DNA from: a bacterium
GTDB taxonomy: Bacteria; Chloroflexota; Dormibacteria; Aeolococcales; Bog-877
Length of the DNA: 33,269 nucleotides
Assembly: GCA_021802045.1 (NCBI GenBank)
Contig: JAKABB010000022.1
Coordinates: forward strand, 1 to 33,269
Direction: 5' to 3'
The notes below the pieces were generated by a model. The model searched no databases, had not been told where the DNA came from, and saw nothing but the letters and a program-made list of their open reading frames with translations. This document shows, one piece after another, positions 630 to 13,418 of this stretch. How positions within the stretch are numbered: the first letter of the stretch is position 1; each line of letters starts with the position of its first letter. A program made the translations under genes and the position numbers.

Positions 630-1214
630 TGGGACCGGACCGCACCTCCAGTGTACCCCAGACGCCCCGGGGACAGGCCTGCGGCGCCGCACAGGTCGCA
701 CCTGGACCCGGCACCGCCCCATCCCGCCGGACGGCGCCGCCGAACCCCACGTGCCAAGTGCTGTCGGACGGGCCCTCGACCTCCCGCAGCCGTCCCGCGG
801 GCCGGTGCCGGAGGGTCGCGGGCGAGGCCAGCTCCCAGCGCCGGCCGGTGACCGCCAGTGGCCGGAGACCAGGGGGTCTGCACCCGTCCATTGGGCGCCG
901 GGAGGCGAGGCAGGCCAGCCGGCCGCGGGCCCTGAGCCTCAGCGTGCGGCGCGGAGCCGGGCGGGGCGGGGCGAGACAAGCCTGCCCGAGCATGACCGGC
1001 GGCGGGCGAGTCCTCGGCCGTTGACGACATGTTGATGCCGAGCCCCAGCCCGTCTACACGACGTTGACGCCACCCGCGCCAGACTCGCCGGCGTGGTCAC
1101 CGCTGGACACCCCGCCGAGACCCGCCACCCCGCCAGCCGGGAACAGTGGAGCGCGGTCCAGCCGGGTGGAGGGTCCGTGAGCCGGCCCCAGACGGCGGCG
1201 ACGCGGGGCCATCA
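630..1214. other. Intergenic region between tmRNA and kdpA
   Basis: These 585 bases separate the divergent tmRNA and kdp genes. Several open frames cross the region on both strands, but all have low-complexity Arg/Pro/Gly/Ala composition typical of shadow frames in GC-rich DNA, and none resembles a protein family. I see only the candidate tmRNA -10 near 650-655 and the candidate kdp promoter at 1032-1060, which would leave a leader of about 150 nt before kdpA. No riboswitch consensus is recognisable. Confidence 0.5.
1032..1060 (+). promoter_or_regulatory. Candidate kdp operon promoter
   Basis: TTGATG at 1032-1037 and TACACG at 1055-1060 are separated by 17 bp, matching sigma-70-type spacing. 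The same -35 hexamer occurs before the hydrolase gene at 23008-23013, and similar -10 hexamers precede tmRNA and ftsA. Another TTGACG lies just upstream at 1021-1026. KdpE would be expected to act near here, but I could not identify its site. Confidence 0.45.
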
Positions 1215-2924
1215 GTGACCTGGCAAGGGGCGCTCCAACCCATCATCCTCGTTGCCGTTGTCGCAGTCCTGGCCTGGTCGGTGGGCTCGTACCTGTACCG
1301 GGTCTTCGAGAACCAGCGGACTTATCTCGACCCCGTGCTGATCCCAGTGGAGCGTGCGGTGTACCGCCTCTGCGGGGTAGACCCCCAGGCTGAGATGCGC
1401 TGGACGACATACGTCTTCGCCCTGCTGGCGGTCAACGTGGTCGGCTTCCTGGTCCTCTTCGGGCTCTTGACCCTGCAGCCGCTGCTGCCGCTGAACCCCG
1501 CCCACCTGCCCGCCATTCCCTTCTGGACGGCGTGGAACACCGCGGTCAGCTTCATGACCAACACCAACTGGCAGGTCTACGGCGGGGAGACCACCATGAG
1601 CTACCTCTCCCAGTCCTGGCTCGTGGTCCAGCAGTTCCTCTCACCGGTGAGCGGGATCTGCCTCTTCCTGGCCGTGGCACGCGGCTTCTCCCGGCAGAAC
1701 AGCCGGACCCTCGGCAACTTCTGGCACGACTTCGTGCGCTCCCTGCTGTGGGTGGCGGTGCCGTTCGCCATCGTCGCCACCATCGTGCTGGTGGCCCTCG
1801 GCAGCCCCCAGAACCTCAAGGCCTACACCCACGTCACCACCCTCCAGGGTGGGCACCAGATCATCGCCCAGGGGCCGATCGCGGCCATGACGGCGATCAT
1901 GCAGCTCGGCGACAACGGCGGCGGCTTCATGAACATGAATGCGGCCCATCCCTTCGAGGCCCCTAACGTAGCCTCGCTGCTCTTCCAGCTGGTGCTGGGC
2001 TTCGCCATCCCGGCGGGGCTGATCTACGTCTTCGGGAAGATGATCAAGGACCGGCGCCAGAGCTGGGCCATCTTCGCCGCCATGGCCGTGATGTTCATCG
2101 GCGGTTCGCTGGTCCTCTATCACTTCGAGGCGGCGGGCAGCGCCATGCTGCCGATGCACCAGGTGCACCTCGCGTCCGCCGGCAACATGGTCGGCAAGGA
2201 GACCCGCTTCGGCGTCGGCACCACCAGCCTCTTCGAGAACTCGACCACCGCGGTCTCCTGGGGCTCGGTGGCGGCCTCCAACGACAGCCTGACCCCCATC
2301 GGTGGCATGGTGGCCCTCTTCAACATGCTGACCGGCGAGGTGATCTTCGGCTCGTGGGGCGTCGGCATGATCGGCATGCTGGCCTACGTGGTGCTGGCGA
2401 TCTTCCTGGCCGGGCTGATGGTCGGACGCACACCCGAGTACCTCGGCAAGAAGATCGGGGCCTACGAGGTCAAGATGGCGGTGCTGGCCATGGTGGTGCC
2501 CAGCTTCGTGATCCTGATCCTGGCCGCCCTCTCGGTAGTGATCCGTCCCGGGCTCGCGGGCATCTTCAATCCCGGACCCCACGGCCTGACCGAGGTCCTG
2601 TATGCCTTCGCCTCCGGGGTCGGCAACAACGGCTCCGCCTTCGGCGGGCTCGCCGCGGCCTCTCCCTGGTACGCCGCCACCGTCGGGGTGGCCATGCTCC
2701 TGGGCCGCTTCCCGATGTACATCCCCCTGGTGGCGATGGCCAGCGTCCTGGCCGGCAAGCAGCGCATCCCGGTCAGCGCCGGCACCTTCCCCACCCACGG
2801 CCCGCTCTTCGTGGTGCTGCTGGTGGGCACGGTCCTGATCGTCGGCGCCCTGGTCTTCTTCCCGGTGCTGGCCCTGGGGCCCCTGGCGGAGCAGTTCGCG
2901 ATGCGGTCCGGTCAGCTGTTCTGA
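1215..2924 (+). CDS. kdpA: Potassium-transporting ATPase subunit KdpA
   Basis: KdpA is the potassium-selective channel-like subunit of the KdpFABC pump in the cytoplasmic membrane. I chose the GTG at 1215 because the resulting 569-residue protein begins directly before the first membrane helix, close to the usual length of about 560. An in-frame ATG at 1146 would add 23 atypical residues. Multiple hydrophobic helices run throughout. The four pore motifs are visible: TNTNWQ (115-120), GDNGGG (232-237), the [17 protein letters not shown] region (349-364) and VGNNGSAF (469-476), followed in family order by [11 protein letters not shown] (404-414). The second and fourth motifs differ from the usual GTNGGG and NNNGSAF. 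It is first in the kdpABC-F operon, with kdpB starting 32 bp downstream. Confidence 0.96.
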
Positions 2925-2956: not shown

Positions 2957-5074
2957 ATGACCGTGGCCTCGTCGCACCCGGAGCCGGTGCCGATCCCCGC
3001 CGGGCCCGGCGACCGTCCGTCCCAGACGCCGCGGCCGCCGCGCCGCGACGAGCGGCTGTGGACGCGGGAGCTGATGAGCGCGGCCGCGGTCAACGGGCTG
3101 CGCAAGCTGGACCCGCGCTCCATGGTCCGCAACCCGGTGATGTTCGTCGTGGAGGTCGGCAGCGTCTTCACCACCGCCGACGCGCTGCGCTACCTGGTCA
3201 CCGGTCACCTGGCCCTCTTCTCCTTCGTCGGGCAGATCTCCGTCTGGCTCTGGCTCACCGTCCTCTTCGCCAACTTCGCCGAGGCCATGGCCGAGGGCCG
3301 CGGGCAGGCGCACGCCGCGGCCTTGCGACGCACCCGAGTGGAGACGGTGGCCCGCCGGGAGACGGCGACCGGTCTGGAGGAGGTGCCCGCGACCGTCCTG
3401 GCCAAGGGGGACGTGGTCCGCGTCGACGCCAACGGCATCATCCCCAGCGACGGCGAGGTCATCGAGGGGGTGGCGTCGGTGGATGAATCCGCCATCACCG
3501 GGGAGTCGGCGCCGGTGATCCGGGAGTCGGGAGGCGACCGATCCGCGGTCACGGGGGGCACGCGGGTCACCTCCGACTGGCTGCGGATCCGCATCGCCGC
3601 CGGCCGGGGGGAAACCTTCCTGGACCGCATGATCGAGCTGATCGAAACCTCGCAGCGCCGCAAGACCCCCAACGAGATCGCGCTGGCCCTCCTCCTGGCC
3701 GGGATGACCCTGATTTTCCTGGTGGTGGTCGTCACCCTGGCACCGTTCTCCGCCTACTCCCACGCCCCGGTCTCGGTGACCGTGCTGATCGCCCTGCTGG
3801 TGGCGCTGGCCCCCACCACCATCGGCGGCCTGCTCTCGGCCATCGGCATCTCCGGCATGAACCGCCTGCTGGAGCGGAACGTGCTGGCCCTCACCGGGCG
3901 CGCGGTGGAGGCCGCCGGCGATGTCAGCGTGATCATGCTGGACAAGACCGGCACCCTCACCCTCGGCAACCGCCAGGCCACCGAGTTCATCTGCGCCCCG
4001 GGTGTCGACCCGACCCAGCTGGCTACCGCGGCCCAGCTGGCCTCCCTGGCCGACGAGACCCCCGAGGGGCGATCGATCGTGGTCCTGGCCAAGACCGCCC
4101 ACGGGCTGCGGGAGCAGCCGCTGGGTGAGCGCGAGGCGGCCTTCGTCCCCTTCAGCGCCCAGACGCGCATGAGCGGTGTCGACCTCGGGGCGCAGCAGAT
4201 CCGCAAGGGAGCCGTCGACGCCGTCGCGGCCTGGACCGGCCAGAGCATCCCCGACGAGGTGGCGGCCACCGTCGACCGCATCTCCCGCAGCGGCGGGACG
4301 CCCCTGCTGGTGGCGCAGGACCGGAGGGTCCTGGGCACGGTGCACCTCAAGGACGTGGTCAAGGAGGGCATCAAGGACCGCTTGCAGGCCCTGCGCAGCG
4401 CCGGCGTGAAGACGGTGATGATCACCGGCGACAACCCGGTCACAGCGGCGGCGATCGCCAGCGAGGTGGGGGTCGACGAGTTCCTGGCCGAGGCCACCCC
4501 CGAGCGCAAGATGGAGTACGTCAAGGCGATGAAGGCGGAAGGCTACCTGGTGGGCATGGTCGGCGACGGCACCAACGACGCCCCCGCCCTGGCCAACGCC
4601 GACGTGGCGGTGGCGATGAACACCGGGACCATGGCCGCCCGCGAGGCCGGCAACATGATCGACCTCGACTCCAACCCCACCAAGCTGATCGAGATCGTCG
4701 AGGTCGGCAAGCAGATCCTGATCACGCGCGGCGCGCTCACCACCTTCTCCGTGGCCAACGACGTGGCCAAGTACTTCGCCATCATCCCGGCGATGTTCGT
4801 GGTGGCCTTCCCCGGCCTGAGCGCCCTCAACGTCATGCACCTGACCTCACCGGGGACCGCCATCCTCTCGGCCATCATCTTCAACGCGCTGATCATCCCC
4901 GCCCTGATCCCGCTGGCCCTGCGCGGCGTCCACTACCGGCCCGCGGGGGCGGCCGTCATCCTGCGCCGCAACCTGCTGATCTATGGGATGGGCGGCATCA
5001 TCCTGCCCTTCGCGGGGATCAAGGTGATCGACATGGCGGTGTCGGCGCTCCATCTCGTCTCGGTGATCCACTAG
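2957..5074 (+). CDS. kdpB: Potassium-transporting P-type ATPase subunit KdpB
   Basis: KdpB is the ATP-hydrolysing P-type ATPase subunit that energises potassium uptake through KdpA. The 705-residue protein has the actuator motif ITGES (180-184), the phosphorylation motif DKTGTLT with the acceptor Asp at 329, and the hinge motif GDGTNDAP (536-543), plus N-terminal and C-terminal membrane helices. All catalytic residues I checked are present. I chose ATG 2957 because AGGAG lies eight bases upstream; an in-frame ATG at 2927 would add ten residues but lacks a ribosome-binding site. The N-terminal 30 residues are Pro/Arg-rich and probably disordered. Ser184 in the TGES loop matches the serine that is inhibited by phosphorylation in the E. 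coli enzyme, so that control could apply here; this is inference. Confidence 0.97.
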
Positions 5075-5124: not shown

Positions 5125-5715
5125 ATGAGGCCGGCGGTGCTGCTCAGCGCCCTGCGCCTGGTCCTACTCGCCACCTTGGTCCTGGGGCCGGTCTACCTGT
5201 TCGCCATGACCGGCGTGGCCCAGCTGCTGCTGCCCGCTCAGGCCAACGGAAGCCTGGTCCGCGTCCACGGCCAGGTGGTGGGATCACGGCTCATCGGCCA
5301 GGCGTTCACCGCGCCCCGCTTCTTCCAGGGGCGCCCCAGCGCGACCACGCCCGCCTACAACGCCGCCGGCTCGGCCGCCAGCAACCTGGGGCCGACCAAC
5401 CCGGCCCTGCTCCAGCACGTCCGGGCGCATCTCCACCAGTTCCTGCAGGAAAACCCCGGGGTGCGTCCGGGCCAGGTCCCGCCGGCCATGGTGGAGAGCT
5501 CGGCCAGCGGGATCGACCCCGACATCCCGGTGGCCGGCGCGCTCCTGCAGGTCCCGCGGGTGGCCAGGGCCAACGGACTGCCGGTGGCCCTGGTCCGCCA
5601 CCTGGTCCTGAGTCATGTCCGGGGCCGCTTCCTTGGGATCTTCGGGGCCAGTTACGTCAATGTCCTGGAGCTGAACGTGGCCCTGCAACGGTTGGCCCGG
5701 CCAGCGTCGGGCTGA
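5125..5715 (+). CDS. kdpC: Potassium-transporting ATPase subunit KdpC
   Basis: KdpC is the single-span subunit that stabilises KdpFABC and assists ATP binding by KdpB. The 196-residue protein has one N-terminal membrane helix (about residues 7-35), then the family signature GSRLIGQAF with RPSAT and SNLGPTNP. A SASGIDPDIPVAGALLQVPRVA stretch corresponds to the usual TaSGSGLDPhIS block and is somewhat divergent. ATG 5125 is preceded by a GGGGGAG ribosome-binding site about seven bases upstream. It follows kdpB by 50 bp and is followed after 10 bp by two tiny membrane-protein genes. Confidence 0.95.
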   Translation: MRPAVLLSALRLVLLATLVLGPVYLFAMTGVAQLLLPAQANGSLVRVHGQVVGSRLIGQAFTAPRFFQGRPSATTPAYNAAGSAASNLGPTNPALLQHVRAHLHQFLQENPGVRPGQVPPAMVESSASGIDPDIPVAGALLQVPRVARANGLPVALVRHLVLSHVRGRFLGIFGASYVNVLELNVALQRLARPASG

Positions 5716-5725
5716 GGGACGGATC

Positions 5726-5809
5726 GTGGAATACCTGCTCGGCATCGTCGGCGTCATCGCAGCCTTCTGGCTGTTCGAGGCCTACGCCCGCGCCTGCGCT
5801 CGGCTGTGA
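5726..5809 (+). CDS. Small single-span membrane protein between kdpC and kdpF
   Basis: A 27-residue frame starting with GTG reads MEYLLGIVGVIAAF, then WLFEAYARACARL, and ends in TGA. It is one hydrophobic helix with an Arg-rich C-terminal end, so it could insert with its C-terminus in the cytoplasm. GAGGGACGG lies just before the start. It begins 10 bp after the kdpC stop and ends 31 bp before kdpF, so it is probably co-transcribed. It resembles KdpF in size and topology but lacks the typical PER ending. It may be a second KdpF-like peptide or a chance frame. Confidence 0.5.
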   Translation: MEYLLGIVGVIAAFWLFEAYARACARL

Positions 5810-5840: not shown

Positions 5841-5930
5841 GTGAGCATCATCGAGACCATCGGCCTTGTCGTGAGCGTGGGGCTGCTGGGCTACCTCGTG
5901 TACGCCGTCCTCTATCCCGAACGCGTCTGA
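5841..5930 (+). CDS. kdpF: KdpF-like small subunit of the Kdp pump
   Basis: KdpF is a tiny lipid-like subunit that stabilises the KdpABC complex. This 29-residue peptide starts with GTG, preceded by GGAGGG, and has a single hydrophobic helix followed by YAVLYPERV. The pattern of an aliphatic helix, a tyrosine-containing turn and a Pro-Glu-Arg end matches KdpF. It lies last in the operon rather than before kdpA as in E. coli. It ends 24 bp from the convergent kdpD sensor gene. Confidence 0.8.
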   Translation: MSIIETIGLVVSVGLLGYLVYAVLYPERV

Positions 5931-5954: not shown

Positions 5955-7118
5955 CTAGCCCGCAGGCCCACCGCCCCCGTACGGATCCATCCGGGGGGCG
6001 ATGATGTGGACGTCGATGCCGGCGAGGGCGGCCTCGCGCAGGACGCGCTCCACCAGCGTCCGCCGGCCCGGCAGGGCGGCCCAGCGCGCGGGCAGGGTCG
6101 CGCCCACCACGATCTGGGTGATCTGGTGGGTGCGGGCGAAGCCCACCAGGTCCGCGGCCGGATCCGTCCCCTGGACCTCGACCCATCGCCCACCCAGGTC
6201 TTGTGTCAGCTGCCGGGCCCGGGCCAGGGCCGCGTCGGCGCGACGGTCGACGATGCCGTCGTCCCCGCCCAAGCACAGGACCAGCAACTCACCCTTGACC
6301 CGGGCCGCGATCCGCGCCGCCCGCCGCAGGAGCGCGTCGCCCTGGCGAGGGTCGGCCAGCCCCACCAGGATCCGCTCGGCCGTCTCCCAGATCTCCGGCA
6401 GGCCGTGCTGGTCGAAGTGGGTCTGCACCGTCTCGTCGATCTTGTCGGCGACGAAGCGCAGCGCCAGCTCCCGCAGCGCCACCAGGTTCTCCTGGCGGAA
6501 AAAGTGGGTCAGGGCGGTTCCGACCTTCTCCAGGGGATAGATGTTGCCGTGGGCCATGCGCCGGCGCAGCTGCTCCGGTGAGGAGTCAACCAGCTCGATC
6601 TGGTTGGCCCGGCGCACCACCCAGTCCGGCACCCGCTCCCGGACCGGCACCCGGGTGATGCGCTCAACCGTGTCGGCCAGGCTCTCCAGGTGCTGGATGT
6701 TGACCGTGGTGATGACGCTGATGCCGGCGTCGAGGAGCTCGATCACGTCCTCCCAGCGCTTGGAGTGGGCCCCGCTCCCCGGCACGTTGGTGTGGGCCAG
6801 CTCGTCGACCAGAGCCAGGGTCGGCCGTCGCGCCAGGACCGCGGCCAGGTCCATCTCCGGGTAGACCCGTCCCTTGTACGACGCCATCCGCCGGGGGACC
6901 ACCTCCAGGCCCTGCAGGTGGGTCGCGGTGAAAGGACGGCCGTGGGTCTCGACGAAGCCCGCCACCACGTCCGCGCCCCGAGCCCGCCTGCGCTGCCCCT
7001 CCTCCAGCATGGCCACCGTCTTCCCCACCCCGGGGGCCGCGCCCAGGTAGACGCGGAAGCGGCCGGTGGGCTCGACGTCGGCCCCGGGAGCCTCGGCGGG
7101 GCCCGGGCCCGGGGTCAC
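5955..7118 (-). CDS. kdpD: Stand-alone KdpD N-terminal sensor domain with USP domain
   Basis: This 387-residue protein is only the cytoplasmic input half of the potassium sensor KdpD. It has the KdpD domain with Walker A GAAPGVGKT (26-34) and DELAHTN (105-111), followed by a universal-stress-protein domain at about 250-375. It ends after a short Gly/Pro tail with no membrane helices and no kinase. The missing DUF4118, HisKA and HATPase modules are in a separate gene at 7925-9436. The start is GTG 7118 and no strong ribosome-binding site is visible. A gap of 120 bp with a perfect hairpin separates it from kdpE, so it may have its own transcript; a TACCCT -10-like hexamer lies in that gap (7197-7192). 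Stand-alone KdpD N-terminal domains are known in cyanobacteria. The likely role is binding the partner kinase in trans, by inference. Confidence 0.9.
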   Translation of the reverse strand: MTPGPGPAEAPGADVEPTGRFRVYLGAAPGVGKTVAMLEEGQRRRARGADVVAGFVETHGRPFTATHLQGLEVVPRRMASYKGRVYPEMDLAAVLARRPTLALVDELAHTNVPGSGAHSKRWEDVIELLDAGISVITTVNIQHLESLADTVERITRVPVRERVPDWVVRRANQIELVDSSPEQLRRRMAHGNIYPLEKVGTALTHFFRQENLVALRELALRFVADKIDETVQTHFDQHGLPEIWETAERILVGLADPRQGDALLRRAARIAARVKGELLVLCLGGDDGIVDRRADAALARARQLTQDLGGRWVEVQGTDPAADLVGFARTHQITQIVVGATLPARWAALPGRRTLVERVLREAALAGIDVHIIAPRMDPYGGGGPAG

Positions 7119-7198
7119 GGCCGGGCGCCACCGGCGGCGACGCCCGCGGCCGCCCAGCGGCCCAGACCTCTGACGGTTTCCACACGGGCTAGGGTAGC

Positions 7199-7238
7199 GG
7201 CGGGGCCCGGGAGGGGCCGGCCGGCCCCGGGCCCCGCC
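7199..7238 (-). terminator. Perfect 13-bp hairpin directly after kdpE
   Basis: GGCGGGGCCCGGG at 7199-7211 is the exact reverse complement of 7226-7238, with a 14-base loop that is itself partly palindromic. The hairpin touches the last base of the kdpE stop codon (7239). It has no T-run on the minus strand. It could be a terminator, an attenuator or an mRNA stabiliser between kdpE and the KdpD sensor gene. Confidence 0.55.
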
Positions 7239-7925
7239 TCAGGCCTCGGGGACCAGCTGGTAGCCGATCCCGGCCCGGGTCCGCAGCCGGGCGGCGGCGG
7301 CCGGGCCCAGCTTGCGGCGCAGCCGGTTGGCGTAGACCCGCAGGTAGTGGGTCTCGTCCCCGTACTGGGGACCCCAGACGTGCTGCAGCAGCATGCGGTG
7401 GGTCAGGACCCGCCCCACGTTCTGGGCCAGGTAGGCCAGCATCTCAAACTCGCGCGGGGTCAAGTCCACGGCCGCGCCCTCCACCGTCACCGTTCGCTGG
7501 GTCAGGTCCACCCGCAGCGGCCCCACCTCCAGCACCGGCTCGTGCGCGGGCCCCAGGCGCAGCGCTTGGCTGTGGCGTGCCGCCACCCGCAGCCGGGCCT
7601 CCAGCTCCGGCATCCCGAACGGCTTGGTGACGAAGTCGTCGGCCCCCGCGTCGAGCGCCGCCACCTTGCGGTCCTCGGCGCCATGGGCGGAGAGGACGAC
7701 GATCGGCACCGGGCTCCACTCGCGGATCCGCCGGCAGACCTCGATCCCGTCCATGTCCGGCAGGCCCAAGTCCAGGATCACCACGTCCGGCTCCGCCAGC
7801 GCCACCTCGGCCAGCCCCTGCTCGCCGGTGGCGGCCGTGCGCACCTCGTGGCCACGGGCGCGCAGGCCGATGCCCAGCGCACGCCCGATCGCCGGCTCGT
7901 CGTCGATGAGCACCAGGCGTGCCAC
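7239..7925 (-). CDS. kdpE: Response regulator KdpE
   Basis: This 228-residue OmpR/PhoB-type regulator controls kdp expression in response to its kinase. The receiver domain has LIDDEP with the acidic pocket at the N-terminus, the phospho-acceptor Asp52 in VILDLGLPDMDG, and Lys101 in VTKPFG. The C-terminal winged-helix DNA-binding domain contains LTPREFEMLAYL and the recognition region HYLRVYANRLRRKLG. The GTG start overlaps the kinase stop codon by one base (TAGTG), so the two are translationally coupled. Its target is presumably the kdp promoter upstream of 1215. Confidence 0.93.
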   Translation of the reverse strand: MARLVLIDDEPAIGRALGIGLRARGHEVRTAATGEQGLAEVALAEPDVVILDLGLPDMDGIEVCRRIREWSPVPIVVLSAHGAEDRKVAALDAGADDFVTKPFGMPELEARLRVAARHSQALRLGPAHEPVLEVGPLRVDLTQRTVTVEGAAVDLTPREFEMLAYLAQNVGRVLTHRMLLQHVWGPQYGDETHYLRVYANRLRRKLGPAAAARLRTRAGIGYQLVPEA

Positions 7926-9436
7926 TACGGCACCGCCGGCAGGGGCGCGGTCACCGGCAGGTGCAGCACCATCGTGGCCCCGCCACCGGGAGTCTCCTCC
8001 ACCGCGATCCGCCCTCCGTGCGCGTCGATGAAGGCCCGGCAGATGGCCAAGCCGAGGCCGGTGCCGTGCCCGACGGTGACCGCCGGCGCCTGGGCCCTCC
8101 AGAACGGCTGGAAGACCTGAGACCACTGGGCGGCGGGAATCCCAGGACCGTGGTCGATGACCCGCAGCTCGACCCACGGTGGCCGGGCCCGGGCCGCGAT
8201 CTCGATCGGCCGGTCCGGGGGCGCATGGCGCAGGGCGTTGTCGATGAGGTTGACCAGGATCTGGCCGACCAGGACCGGGTCCACGTCCAGGAGCGGCAGG
8301 TCGGGGTCGAGGGCCGCGGTCAGCCGACCCGGAGCCAGGTCGGGCCAGGGGTGCCACAGCACCTCGTCCACGATCTCGCCCAGGTCGGTCGGTTGCCGGG
8401 CCGGCCGGAGGGCCCCGGACTCGATCCGGGCCATGTCCAGCAGGTTGGTGACCAGACGGGTCAGGCGGTCGGTCTCGCTGGCGATGGTCCCAAGGAGCTC
8501 GGCCCGGTCGTCGTCCGCGATCACGAGCCCGGCCTGGCCCAGGTCGGAGGCGGCGGCCTTGATGGTGGCCAGAGGGGTCCGCAGGTCGTGGGAGACGGTG
8601 CGCAGCAGCGCCGAGCGCCCCCGGTCGATCTGCTCCAGCACCTCGGCCCGCGTGGCCTGGTCCCGCAGCCGCGCCCGCTCGACCGCCAGCGACGCCTGAT
8701 TGGCCAGGGTGGTGAGCAGGCGGTCGTCGTGGCGCTGACCCGGGCCCTCCACCACCACCAGCAGCCCCACCGGCCCGTGCAGGGTCGACAGCGGCACCGC
8801 CCGCCAGTCCTGCCCGGAAGCGACCGGCACCGGGTCGCGCGGCGTCCCCGGGCGGTCGATGAGCTGCGCCACCACCCCGGCCGGCAGCGGGGCCCCGGCC
8901 GCGGCGGCCAGCTCCATCCCGGCGGGGCCCGGCAGGAAGGCCGCCACGCTGTGGAGACGGAGCTCGCGGTGGAGATCGTCCACCGCCAGCTGCAGCAGCT
9001 CGGGCGGGGTCCGGTCCAAGAGCAGGAGCTCCGAGAACTCGAAGAGGCGCCGAGTGGTCTCCTCCCGGTGCGCCGCCTGGTCCCGGGCCCGGTCCAGCCC
9101 CGCGACCGTGCGCGCCACCAGCAGCACCACCACGGCGTACACCCCAAGGACCACCCAGTCCTGGGCGGCCCCCACGGCCAGGGTGCCGAAGGGGCGGATG
9201 AAGAGGAAGTCGTAGGCCAGGAAGCCCGCTGCCACCGCCACCAGCCCGGCCACGAACCCGCCGGCGACCGCCGCCGCCACCACCGGCACGACCAGGACCA
9301 GGCCAGCGGTGGCCGGGCTGAGGTGACCGCGCAGCGGCAGCAGGGCCGCCGAAGCTCCGGCCGTGCCGCCCAGCGCGACCAGGACCCCGACGCCGAGACG
9401 GGCCCGGGCGTGCCGCGGGCGTCGAAGACGCCACAC
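7925..9436 (-). CDS. kdpD: KdpD-type sensor histidine kinase lacking the KdpD/USP input domains
   Basis: The 503-residue kinase has a short N-terminal membrane module (three to four helices, about residues 14-112) of the DUF4118 type with the DFLFIRPFGTL motif, a GAF-like region (about 130-255), HisKA with phospho-acceptor His283 in SHDLRTPLA, and HATPase_c with NLIDNALRHAP, DHGPGIP and GTGLGLAI. It corresponds to the C-terminal half of canonical KdpD (about 890 residues), while the N-terminal half is encoded separately at 5955-7118. The GTG start at 9436 has no clear ribosome-binding site. It is followed by kdpE with a one-base overlap. It lies 58 bp after smpB and may be read through from that operon. 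Confidence 0.92.
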   Translation of the reverse strand: MWRLRRPRHARARLGVGVLVALGGTAGASAALLPLRGHLSPATAGLVLVVPVVAAAVAGGFVAGLVAVAAGFLAYDFLFIRPFGTLAVGAAQDWVVLGVYAVVVLLVARTVAGLDRARDQAAHREETTRRLFEFSELLLLDRTPPELLQLAVDDLHRELRLHSVAAFLPGPAGMELAAAAGAPLPAGVVAQLIDRPGTPRDPVPVASGQDWRAVPLSTLHGPVGLLVVVEGPGQRHDDRLLTTLANQASLAVERARLRDQATRAEVLEQIDRGRSALLRTVSHDLRTPLATIKAAASDLGQAGLVIADDDRAELLGTIASETDRLTRLVTNLLDMARIESGALRPARQPTDLGEIVDEVLWHPWPDLAPGRLTAALDPDLPLLDVDPVLVGQILVNLIDNALRHAPPDRPIEIAARARPPWVELRVIDHGPGIPAAQWSQVFQPFWRAQAPAVTVGHGTGLGLAICRAFIDAHGGRIAVEETPGGGATMVLHLPVTAPLPAVP

Positions 9437-10943: not shown

Positions 10944-13418
10944 TCAGCCCGCGGGGCCGAGATGGCAGGTGACATCGGCGACGGCGATGTCGGAGCGGCT
11001 CAGCAGCGCCTGCTTGATCCAGAAGGCCCGGTGGTTGTGGAGCACCTGACGCCACCAGTGGCGCACCACCAGCTCCGGCATGACCACCGTGCACAGCGGC
11101 CCGGGGTTGCTGACACGCCAGGCGGAGATGTAGGCCAGGAGCGGGTCCACCACCACCCGGAATGGCGAGGCGATGACCATCGCCGGGGCGACCCGCGAAC
11201 CGGGCCGGACGGAGCGCTGGGCCACCCAGGGGTCCCAGCTGCGGCGGAACGCGGCCACGGCCAGCTCCAGGGCCCGTGCGTCCTCCTCGCCCTCCGAGGA
11301 GGCGACGTGCACCGGGATGACCTCGGTGGCGATGCGGCTGGCGTAGAGGAGCGCCCGCTCGGCCAGCAGCCCGGGCCCGGCCACCGGCACCAGGGCCACG
11401 TGGACCTGGCCGGCGGGCCGCCCGGCCGCCAGCTCCTCCGGCCGGAGGCCCTCCGCCGCGCCCCCGGCGGGCAGGCTGGCCGCCACCAGCCCGGGGCGCC
11501 GGAGGAGCGCCAGCTTCATGCGCAGGAGCCAGGGGCGGCGGATGAGGTCGGCCCAACCCCGCTGGGCCACCCGCTCCGGCAGCACCACGGTGACCGTGGG
11601 GCCACCGTCGGCGCGCAGGCGGTCGACGATGGCCAGCAGCCCCGAGACCGAGCGCAGCTGGTCCCCCCGGCCGCCCATCGGCACCGGGACCACCTCGCCG
11701 CCGATGGCCCGGGCGTACGCCAGGGCTCGGCGCACGGACGGGTCCTGCTCCTGGCCGCGGCGGTACGGCACCACCACCGGCCCCGGGCCCGACGGCTGGT
11801 CCGGGCCGCGACCGCTGACCTGGTGCCGCACCCACCGGTAGTGGCGCCCGATGGCGGCGAAGAGCGCCACCAGGAGGGGGACGATGATCAGCACCACCCA
11901 GGCGCCGCGCGGGGTCTTGGTGACGATGATGACCAGGTCCACCACCAGGGTGGCGGCGGCGCCGGTGCCGTTGATGGCGACGTTGCGGCGCCAGTGGGCC
12001 CCGCGCTCCACCCACCAGTGACGCACCATCGCCCCCTGGGCCAGGGTGAAGGCGGTGAAGACCCCAAGGGCGTAGAGGTTGATGAGGTCGTTGGTGTTGC
12101 CGTTGAAGGCGATCAGGAGGACCGCGGCGGCGGCCGCCAGCAGGCCGATGGCGGTGCTGTAGACCAGCCGCCCGCCGAGGTGGGCGAAGCGGTGCGGGAG
12201 GTGGTCGTCGCGGGCCAGCACCGCGCCCAGGCGGGGCAGGCCGTTGAAGCTGGTGTTGGCGGCCAGGATCAGGACCAGGGTGGTGGAGAACTGGATCACG
12301 TAGAAGAACCAGCGGCCCGGGCCGGTGAAGACCTGGGTCGCGATCTGGGCCACCACGGTCGGGTTGCTGTTGGGCTGGGGCACGACGCTGTAGACCAGGT
12401 CCAGCAGGTCCACCCCCAGGAGCAGCGTGATCAGCACGATCCCCAGGACCACCAGGGTCCGGGCGGCGTTGCGGGCCGCCGGGGGGCGGAAGCTGGGCAC
12501 GCCGTTGGAGACCGCCTCGATGCCGGTCATCGACGAGCACCCGGTGGCGAAGGCGGTGAGGATCAGGAAGGGCGCGACGGCGGCGGCGGGGTGCGGGATC
12601 GGGGGGAAGTGGGCGAAGGGCCGGCGGGTGGCGCCGAAGAGGAGCCCGCGGACCAGGCCGACCCCGATGAGGGTCAGGAAGCTGCCGACGAACAGGTAGG
12701 TCGGGGCGGCGAAGATGGCCCCGGCCTCCCGGACCCCGCGCAGGTTGCCGACGGCGAGGAGGGCGATGAAGACCAGCCCCAGCACGAGCTTCAGCGCGGC
12801 CAGGGACCCGAAGGCCGATATCAGGGCGTCGACCCCGGAGGAGACACTCACCGCCACCGTCAGGATGTAGTCCACCACCAGGGCGGCGGCGGCGATGAGG
12901 CCGGGGATGACGCCCAGGTTGGCGCGGGCCACCGCGTAGGACCCGCCTCCTTGGGGGTGCCCGAAGATCACCTGCCGGTAGGAGGTGACCACCAGCGCCA
13001 CCAGGACGGCGATGGCGATCCCGATGGGGAGGTTGATGGCCAGGGCCCCGGCCCCGGCCACCGCCAGCACCACCAGCCCGGCCTCGGGGCCGTAGGCCAT
13101 CGACGAGAGGGCGTCGGACGAGAGGATGGGCAAGGCCCGCCGGATCGAGAGCCGCTCGCTGTCGACGGAGCGGATGCTGAGCGGGCGGCCGAACAGGAAG
13201 CGGTTGACGCGGCCGGCCAGGCCCCGCGGCCCGCCGGGGAGGCCCGCCCGCTCGGTGGCCTCCACCAGCCCCTTGCCCATGAGGCGGAAGGCGCCGTCGT
13301 CGGCCCGCTCGATGCGCACGTAGCGGTCCCCGGGGCGTGAGCCGGACTCCGCCACCGGGCGCTCCAGGGCGCCTCCCAGCAGGTCGGGCGGGTCAGGGGG
13401 CAGGCCGGTGGCGGGCAC
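10944..13418 (-). CDS. KimA-like APC/KUP-family potassium transporter with doubled cytosolic domain
   Basis: The 824-residue protein matches B. subtilis KimA (YdaO) in order of motifs: LSSDALSSMAYGPE (99-112), HPQGGGSYAVARANLG (154-169), VDYILTVAVSVSSG (182-195), GCSSMTGIEAVSN (293-305), PPAARNAARTL and ANTSFNGLP (387-395). The membrane core spans about 100-525 with roughly 12 helices. KimA is a proton-coupled high-affinity potassium importer of about 607 residues. This protein is longer because it has about 90 extra N-terminal residues and two KimA-type cytosolic domains in tandem (about 545-651 and 671-820). Both have an RxW...L-R/H hallmark followed by an aliphatic motif. The start is GTG, with GAGG about 13 bases upstream. 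It sits between priA and fmt. No c-di-AMP riboswitch fits in the 82-bp upstream gap. An amino-acid substrate cannot be excluded. Confidence 0.85.
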   Translation of the reverse strand: MPATGLPPDPPDLLGGALERPVAESGSRPGDRYVRIERADDGAFRLMGKGLVEATERAGLPGGPRGLAGRVNRFLFGRPLSIRSVDSERLSIRRALPILSSDALSSMAYGPEAGLVVLAVAGAGALAINLPIGIAIAVLVALVVTSYRQVIFGHPQGGGSYAVARANLGVIPGLIAAAALVVDYILTVAVSVSSGVDALISAFGSLAALKLVLGLVFIALLAVGNLRGVREAGAIFAAPTYLFVGSFLTLIGVGLVRGLLFGATRRPFAHFPPIPHPAAAVAPFLILTAFATGCSSMTGIEAVSNGVPSFRPPAARNAARTLVVLGIVLITLLLGVDLLDLVYSVVPQPNSNPTVVAQIATQVFTGPGRWFFYVIQFSTTLVLILAANTSFNGLPRLGAVLARDDHLPHRFAHLGGRLVYSTAIGLLAAAAAVLLIAFNGNTNDLINLYALGVFTAFTLAQGAMVRHWWVERGAHWRRNVAINGTGAAATLVVDLVIIVTKTPRGAWVVLIIVPLLVALFAAIGRHYRWVRHQVSGRGPDQPSGPGPVVVPYRRGQEQDPSVRRALAYARAIGGEVVPVPMGGRGDQLRSVSGLLAIVDRLRADGGPTVTVVLPERVAQRGWADLIRRPWLLRMKLALLRRPGLVAASLPAGGAAEGLRPEELAAGRPAGQVHVALVPVAGPGLLAERALLYASRIATEVIPVHVASSEGEEDARALELAVAAFRRSWDPWVAQRSVRPGSRVAPAMVIASPFRVVVDPLLAYISAWRVSNPGPLCTVVMPELVVRHWWRQVLHNHRAFWIKQALLSRSDIAVADVTCHLGPAG

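What the first reader, a model, noticed from the sequence alone, without database searches (positions are those of the whole stretch)
5955..9436. KdpD split into two genes flanking kdpE
The kinase half (7925-9436) and the KdpD/USP sensor half (5955-7118) are separate, with kdpE between them. Canonical KdpD is one protein of about 890 residues. The two halves together rebuild the full domain set, so this looks like a fission with gene rearrangement. The sensor may act in trans, giving an extra regulatory step.
Basis: partly seen in the sequence, partly recalled or inferred. Interest (0 to 1): 0.7.

Follow-up and report, generated by a model that had tools for sequence, protein, structure and literature searches.

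The report
Potassium sensor KdpD in two genes
A bacterial potassium-pump regulator that is usually one protein is made here as two separate proteins, an arrangement already reported in other bacteria and common among this one's nearest relatives.

Summary
On the minus strand, in transcription order, lie kdpD-C (9436-7925: membrane domain, GAF-like region, histidine kinase), kdpE (7925-7239) and kdpD-N (7118-5955: KdpD ATP-binding domain plus Usp). They converge on kdpABC. The assembly (86% complete) holds no other KdpD domain and no other DUF4118 protein. It is not an assembly artefact: the same split recurs in related genomes, and the catalytic residues are intact in both halves except one adenine-contact residue (Trp to Val).

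It is not new in kind. A 2024 paper reports that some species carry the KdpD serine-kinase and histidine-kinase activities on separate chains, most commonly as KdpD/Usp plus TM/GAF/DHpCA. Deinococcus radiodurans has a related arrangement. Here, 49 of the 80 nearest loci fetched show a separate kinase gene or piece, and 11 are fused. Trees of both halves put all split forms in one clade, so one old fission, followed by transfer and reshuffling, is the simplest account. Only the exact order (kdpD-C, kdpE, kdpD-N) is unusual.

Most likely mechanism: kdpD-N is a free serine kinase that shuts off the pump by phosphorylating KdpB, while kdpD-C and kdpE control transcription. "Sensor half" is a legacy name.

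The parts
7925..9436 (-). kdpD-C: DUF4118 membrane domain, GAF-like region, HisKA, HATPase; phospho-acceptor His283 at 8588-8590
7239..7925 (-). kdpE, OmpR-type response regulator; start GTG overlaps the kdpD-C stop by one base; likely phospho-acceptor Asp at 7770-7772
   Evidence: the Asp is assigned by motif, from general knowledge
5955..7118 (-). kdpD-N: KdpD atypical serine kinase domain plus Usp domain; Walker A at 7017-7043, Walker B Asp-Glu at 6801-6806
7119..7238 (-). 120-base gap between kdpE and kdpD-N with a G+C-rich hairpin just after kdpE; not clearly beyond chance (z -1.64, 12 of 200 shuffles fold as well)
1146..2924 (+). kdpA
2999..5074 (+). kdpB (frame given; true start may lie a little downstream); carries AITGESAPV, identical to E. 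coli around Ser162; Ser codon 3506-3508
5125..5715 (+). kdpC
5841..5930 (+). kdpF (29 aa), downstream of kdpC instead of upstream of kdpA
   Evidence: PF09604, 36.1 bits, cut-off 21.2

Best explanation
This is a KdpD split into a soluble serine kinase (kdpD-N) and a membrane histidine kinase (kdpD-C). KdpD-C senses low potassium through its membrane and GAF-like domains and phosphorylates KdpE, which switches on kdpABC. KdpD-N works in trans: at sufficient potassium its Walker A/B site phosphorylates the Ser of the TGES motif in KdpB and stops the pump. Its Usp domain gives it its own input, possibly c-di-AMP. Shown here: the gene split, intact catalytic residues in both halves apart from Trp39 to Val, the target serine, a diadenylate cyclase gene, and halves that vary together across loci. 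Inferred: all activities, the input signal, and any physical contact between the halves. The split arose once in the lineage shared with many Actinomycetota and was later reshuffled here.
For: Kinase motifs: Walker A G-x5-GKT and Walker B Asp-Glu match E. coli G36-K37-T38 and D109-E110; R190 is conserved (R187). These residues are invariant in 18 of 18 aligned split homologues. His673 corresponds to His283, invariant in 18 of 18 kinase halves, together with the N and G boxes. KdpB has AITGESAPV as in E. coli. PMC11018627 (passages, section 8) shows that the N domain phosphorylates KdpB Ser162, that a stand-alone KdpD/Usp protein of D. geothermalis does so and is stimulated by c-di-AMP, and that split ASK and HK chains occur. 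The own genome has one DAC-domain gene. Trees: split N halves form one clade of 72 rows (SH-aLRT 99), split C halves one clade of 49 rows (99), each next to fused actinobacterial KdpD. N and C distances correlate (r 0.74, 46 loci, 0 of 2000 permutations as high) more than either does with KdpA (0.41 and 0.40, 30 loci; N-C on the same 30 is 0.79).
Against: The adenine-contact Trp39 of E. coli is Val35 here, and mutating W39 together with R190 almost abolished activity in E. coli. The S. aureus c-di-AMP motif SXS-X20-FTAXY (PMC4686210) is absent, as in all 130 KdpD-N-bearing ORFs scanned with a slightly relaxed pattern, so the c-di-AMP input is weakly supported. The N-C correlation may only reflect shared descent. 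The trees are quick builds rooted at the midpoint with SH-aLRT support only, and the window row has a long branch. The NCBIfam KdpD_non_kinase model scores 353 bits, under its cut-off of 550. No expression data.
Confidence: 0.78

Rival explanations
1. KdpD-N mainly works on its partner: it binds KdpD-C in trans and sets the kinase/phosphatase balance, as the N domain is thought to do inside E. coli KdpD; serine-kinase activity on KdpB is secondary or lost.
For: Halves co-vary (r 0.74) and each half's split forms group together in its tree. [quoted passage not shown] coli KdpD and that deleting residues 12-128 deregulates the phosphatase. Val replaces the adenine-contact Trp.
Against: The serine-kinase residues are invariant in 18 of 18 split homologues and the KdpB target is intact; a stand-alone KdpD/Usp with no kinase half on the same chain is an active serine kinase in D. 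geothermalis. The two roles do not exclude each other.
Confidence: 0.3
2. Assembly error or frameshift in a normal full-length kdpD.
For: The window is one contig of a 206-contig draft assembly.
Against: kdpE and a 120-base gap lie between the halves in reversed domain order; related genomes show the same split with clean gene ends (G003: ATGA overlap; G002: TTGA overlap) and so do 49 of 80 named loci.
Confidence: 0.01
3. The kdpD-N gene is a decaying leftover without function.
For: Usp match under the Pfam cut-off; Val at the Trp39 position.
Against: 387-residue open frame, 51-60% identical to 17 homologues with invariant catalytic residues; the model has an N domain like 2r8r and a Usp domain like 7ji4.
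Confidence: 0.05

Closest known systems
Split KdpD: KdpD/Usp serine kinase plus TM/GAF/DHpCA histidine kinase (PMC11018627, section 8 read)
   Same: Same two-chain domain division, with KdpE present and a KdpB serine target.
   Different: The section read gives no gene order; here kdpE lies between the halves and no kdpABC gene does.
Deinococcus radiodurans kdpD-N plus separate sensor kinase and response regulator (PMC5716572, passages; record)
   Same: Stand-alone KdpD-N (44% identical to the window's) with a separate kinase and response regulator on the opposite strand from its kdp pump genes.
   Different: Its kinase is annotated as HAMP-domain and aligns with the window's only over residues 204-494 (29% identity), not over the DUF4118 membrane part.
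Split KdpD of Acidimicrobiia-type MAGs and Acidithrix ferrooxidans (within L144-L221)
   Same: Nearest homologues, 51-63% identity to the query; same kdpD-N / kdpD-C / kdpE set.
   Different: In 33 of 44 loci with a kinase gene in view kdpD-N is on the opposite strand; the nearest layout is L148: kdpD-C, kdpE, kdpA, kdpB, kdpC, small ORF, kdpF, kdpD-N.
E. coli KdpD
   Same: All domains present between the two halves; 44% and 32% identity.
   Different: One 894-residue chain, followed by kdpE.

Membership tests
Split KdpD (ASK chain plus HK chain) | KdpD and Usp domains on a chain without DHp/CA | tested here: met
   PF02702 303 bits; Usp weak by sequence (18.7, cut-off 24) but Usp fold in the model (7ji4 TM 0.84 by target length, mean pLDDT only 67.9)
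Split KdpD (ASK chain plus HK chain) | TM, GAF and DHp/CA on a second chain | tested here: met
   DUF4118, HisKA and HATPase by Pfam; GAF has no Pfam match but the region aligns with the E. coli GAF region and the model shows an alpha/beta domain there
Split KdpD (ASK chain plus HK chain) | no full-length KdpD in the genome | tested here: met
   one PF02702 and one PF13493 match in the assembly; assembly 86% complete
Atypical serine kinase acting on KdpB | Walker A, Walker B Asp-Glu and Trp/Arg adenine pair | tested here: inconclusive
   all kept except Trp39 to Val35
Atypical serine kinase acting on KdpB | phosphorylates KdpB Ser162 equivalent | not testable with these tools
   target serine and AITGES context present; needs an assay
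c-di-AMP-binding KdpD Usp (S. aureus type) | SXS-X20-FTAXY motif | tested here: not met
   absent
NCBIfam NF038185 KdpD_non_kinase | score above the curated cut-off (550 bits) | tested here: not met
   353.4 bits
Canonical full-length KdpD | all domains on one chain | tested here: not met

The most novel reading that the evidence does not exclude
In this group of bacteria the KdpB serine kinase has become an independent module, controlled apart from the histidine kinase. In most of the relatives fetched it was duplicated into an active-plus-degenerate tandem, while the window's lineage carries a single-module set shared with Actinomycetota. If so, rapid pump shut-off and transcriptional control answer to different signals, and the degenerate second module is a regulatory pseudokinase.
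Probability: 0.25. Interest if true: 0.5.

Novelty: new member of a known kind. Interest (0 to 1): 0.24.

Why it matters
It shows, in Candidatus Dormiibacterota (phylum by the title of a same-family record), an organism in which the two activities of KdpD are physically separate, which makes it possible to test each activity alone. The split is also informative because the halves have stayed together through transfer and reshuffling, which suggests that both are needed. Beyond that it is ordinary.

Tried and rejected
Assembly artefact: rejected, because the split recurs with clean gene ends in other genomes. Contaminant contig: rejected by PriA. A hidden full-length KdpD: not found. c-di-AMP motif: not found. 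Operon tests: the consensus scan found no sigma-70-type promoter and one terminator-like site inside kdpD-N, against 0.4 expected; the hairpin after kdpE is not clearly beyond chance. KdpA search in plasmids gave nothing at or above 60% identity. Literature: searches for KdpD with stand-alone/truncated, split/domain architecture, cyanobacteria/Deinococcus, Acidimicrobi-, tandem/duplicat-/Usp domain, c-di-AMP/FTAXY, Dormibacter, the phrases for double or tandem KdpD, and half/separate-gene wording. Papers read: only passages of PMC11018627, PMC5716572 and PMC4686210, plus section 8 of the first; all others were seen as search listings only. The phrase search for tandem or double KdpD returned one paper, which I did not open. 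Subscription papers and supplements were not searched, so absence from print is not shown.

Rows left out: the 80-locus count is a best-hits set chosen by similarity to a split query, so it over-represents split forms. The automatic count was 44 split, 27 without a kinase in view, 9 fused; I moved L209 and L217 to fused and L152, L183, L186, L205 and L211 to split after reading. L205 is the same contig as L093 and was left out of the trees under the first name. In the N tree the label acid_split means not fused and includes rows whose kinase gene lies outside the stretch; the C tree holds 45 of these loci. L175 also carries a full-length KdpD upstream of its KdpD-N. Tandem counts use stretches from 40 of the 60 relatives. 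The two structure models used 18 homologues each.

Full report
What is there. The minus strand reads kdpD-C (9436-7925), kdpE (7925-7239) and kdpD-N (7118-5955), converging on kdpA, kdpB, kdpC and kdpF on the plus strand. The small protein holds the KdpD domain and a Usp-like domain; the large one holds DUF4118, HisKA and HATPase. Aligned to E. coli KdpD they cover residues 23-364 and 430-885, so together they rebuild the full set. The kdpD-C stop and kdpE start overlap (TAGTG), which suggests translational coupling. A 120-base gap separates kdpE from kdpD-N.

Is it real? The genome search finds only one KdpD domain and one DUF4118 domain, both here. The genome is 86% complete, so an unseen copy is possible but unlikely. 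PriA on the same contig is 54-69% identical to PriA of the 8 class-mates searched, while the matches in 5 Actinomycetota genomes are partial and 27-36% identical, so the contig is correctly binned. In same-family genomes G003 and G002 the halves are adjacent and in order, with overlapping stop and start codons, which excludes sequencing error as the general cause.

How common is it? A scan of named genomes with an alignment of three split KdpD-N proteins returned 80 best loci, mostly Acidimicrobiaceae, Acidimicrobiales and other actinobacterial MAGs plus Acidithrix ferrooxidans, Streptomyces and Nocardioides. Reading the gene maps, 49 of 80 have a kinase gene or piece separate from kdpD-N, 11 are fused and 20 show no kinase in the stretch. 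In the 44 with a full kinase gene in view, kdpD-N is on the opposite strand in 33 and on the same strand in 11. kdpE lies between the halves in 7 of the 44 (5 flagged by the script, 2 more by their coordinates), each time with kdpA, kdpB and kdpC there too. None of the 44 has the window's contiguous kdpD-C, kdpE, kdpD-N order. This set was picked by similarity to a split query and is not a census.

History. Trees of the N part (125 rows) and the C part (92 rows) each place all split forms of this type, the window included, in one clade (72 rows and 49 rows, SH-aLRT 99 in both), next to fused actinobacterial KdpD; the tandem proteins of the class-mates and their kinases lie apart. The simplest account is one old fission followed by transfer between Actinomycetota and Dormiibacterota; the direction is unresolved, and the window is the first branch of the N clade. 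The pump genes moved as well: KdpA of the window is 82% identical to L148 and 73% to G009 and G012, but at most 52% to the other long class-mate matches (one short partial match, G039, is 77%).

Function. PMC11018627 (passages, section 8) shows that the N domain of KdpD is an atypical serine kinase that phosphorylates KdpB Ser162 and inhibits the pump, that a stand-alone KdpD/Usp protein of D. geothermalis does the same and responds to c-di-AMP but not to K+, and that some species carry the two activities on separate chains in this very combination. The window protein keeps Walker A, Walker B and Arg190, but has Val for Trp39. KdpB keeps the target serine. The genome has a diadenylate cyclase domain, and the Usp model resembles the c-di-AMP-bound Usp of KdpD (7ji4), yet the S. 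aureus binding motif is missing. I therefore hold the serine-kinase role as likely, and c-di-AMP as open. The halves co-vary (r 0.74 over 46 loci), which fits a joint function but may be shared descent.

Verdict. The more interesting lead lies in the relatives. In 28 of the 40 relatives whose stretches I fetched, KdpD occurs as a tandem of two KdpD/Usp modules without a kinase (32 proteins). Module 1 keeps GKT in 32 of 32 and Asp-Glu in 31 of 32. Module 2 keeps GKT in 9 of 32 and has Asp-Asp in 30 of 32.

Noticed in passing
L096-L133 and others, e.g. L105:5175-7481 (-), L116:11070-13280 (+): Tandem KdpD/Usp-KdpD/Usp proteins without histidine kinase in 28 of 40 class-mates fetched; the second module has mostly lost the Walker A Lys and the Walker B Glu, suggesting an active-plus-pseudokinase pair.
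   Followed up: partly
window 5726-5809 (+); L148:7630-7719; L104 and L105 between kdpC and kdpF: A tiny hydrophobic ORF ending FWLFxxYxxACxxL lies between kdpC and a displaced kdpF in four loci with the same KdpA type; the window copy has no Pfam match.
   Followed up: partly
window 5841-5930 (+): kdpF sits downstream of kdpC rather than upstream of kdpA.
   Followed up: yes
window 10947-13418 (-): Homologue of the potassium transporter KimA (400 bits to 6s3k), with a longer C-terminal part, about 1.5 kb from the kdp genes.
   Followed up: partly
L102, L104, L105 (G009, G012): These relatives carry a full-length KdpD, kdpE and a tandem KdpD together.
   Followed up: partly
L175:4485-9089: A full-length KdpD, kdpE and then a separate single KdpD/Usp protein in one actinobacterial MAG.
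   Followed up: no
window 7192-7240 (-): Long G+C-rich hairpin directly after kdpE without a T run.
   Followed up: partly
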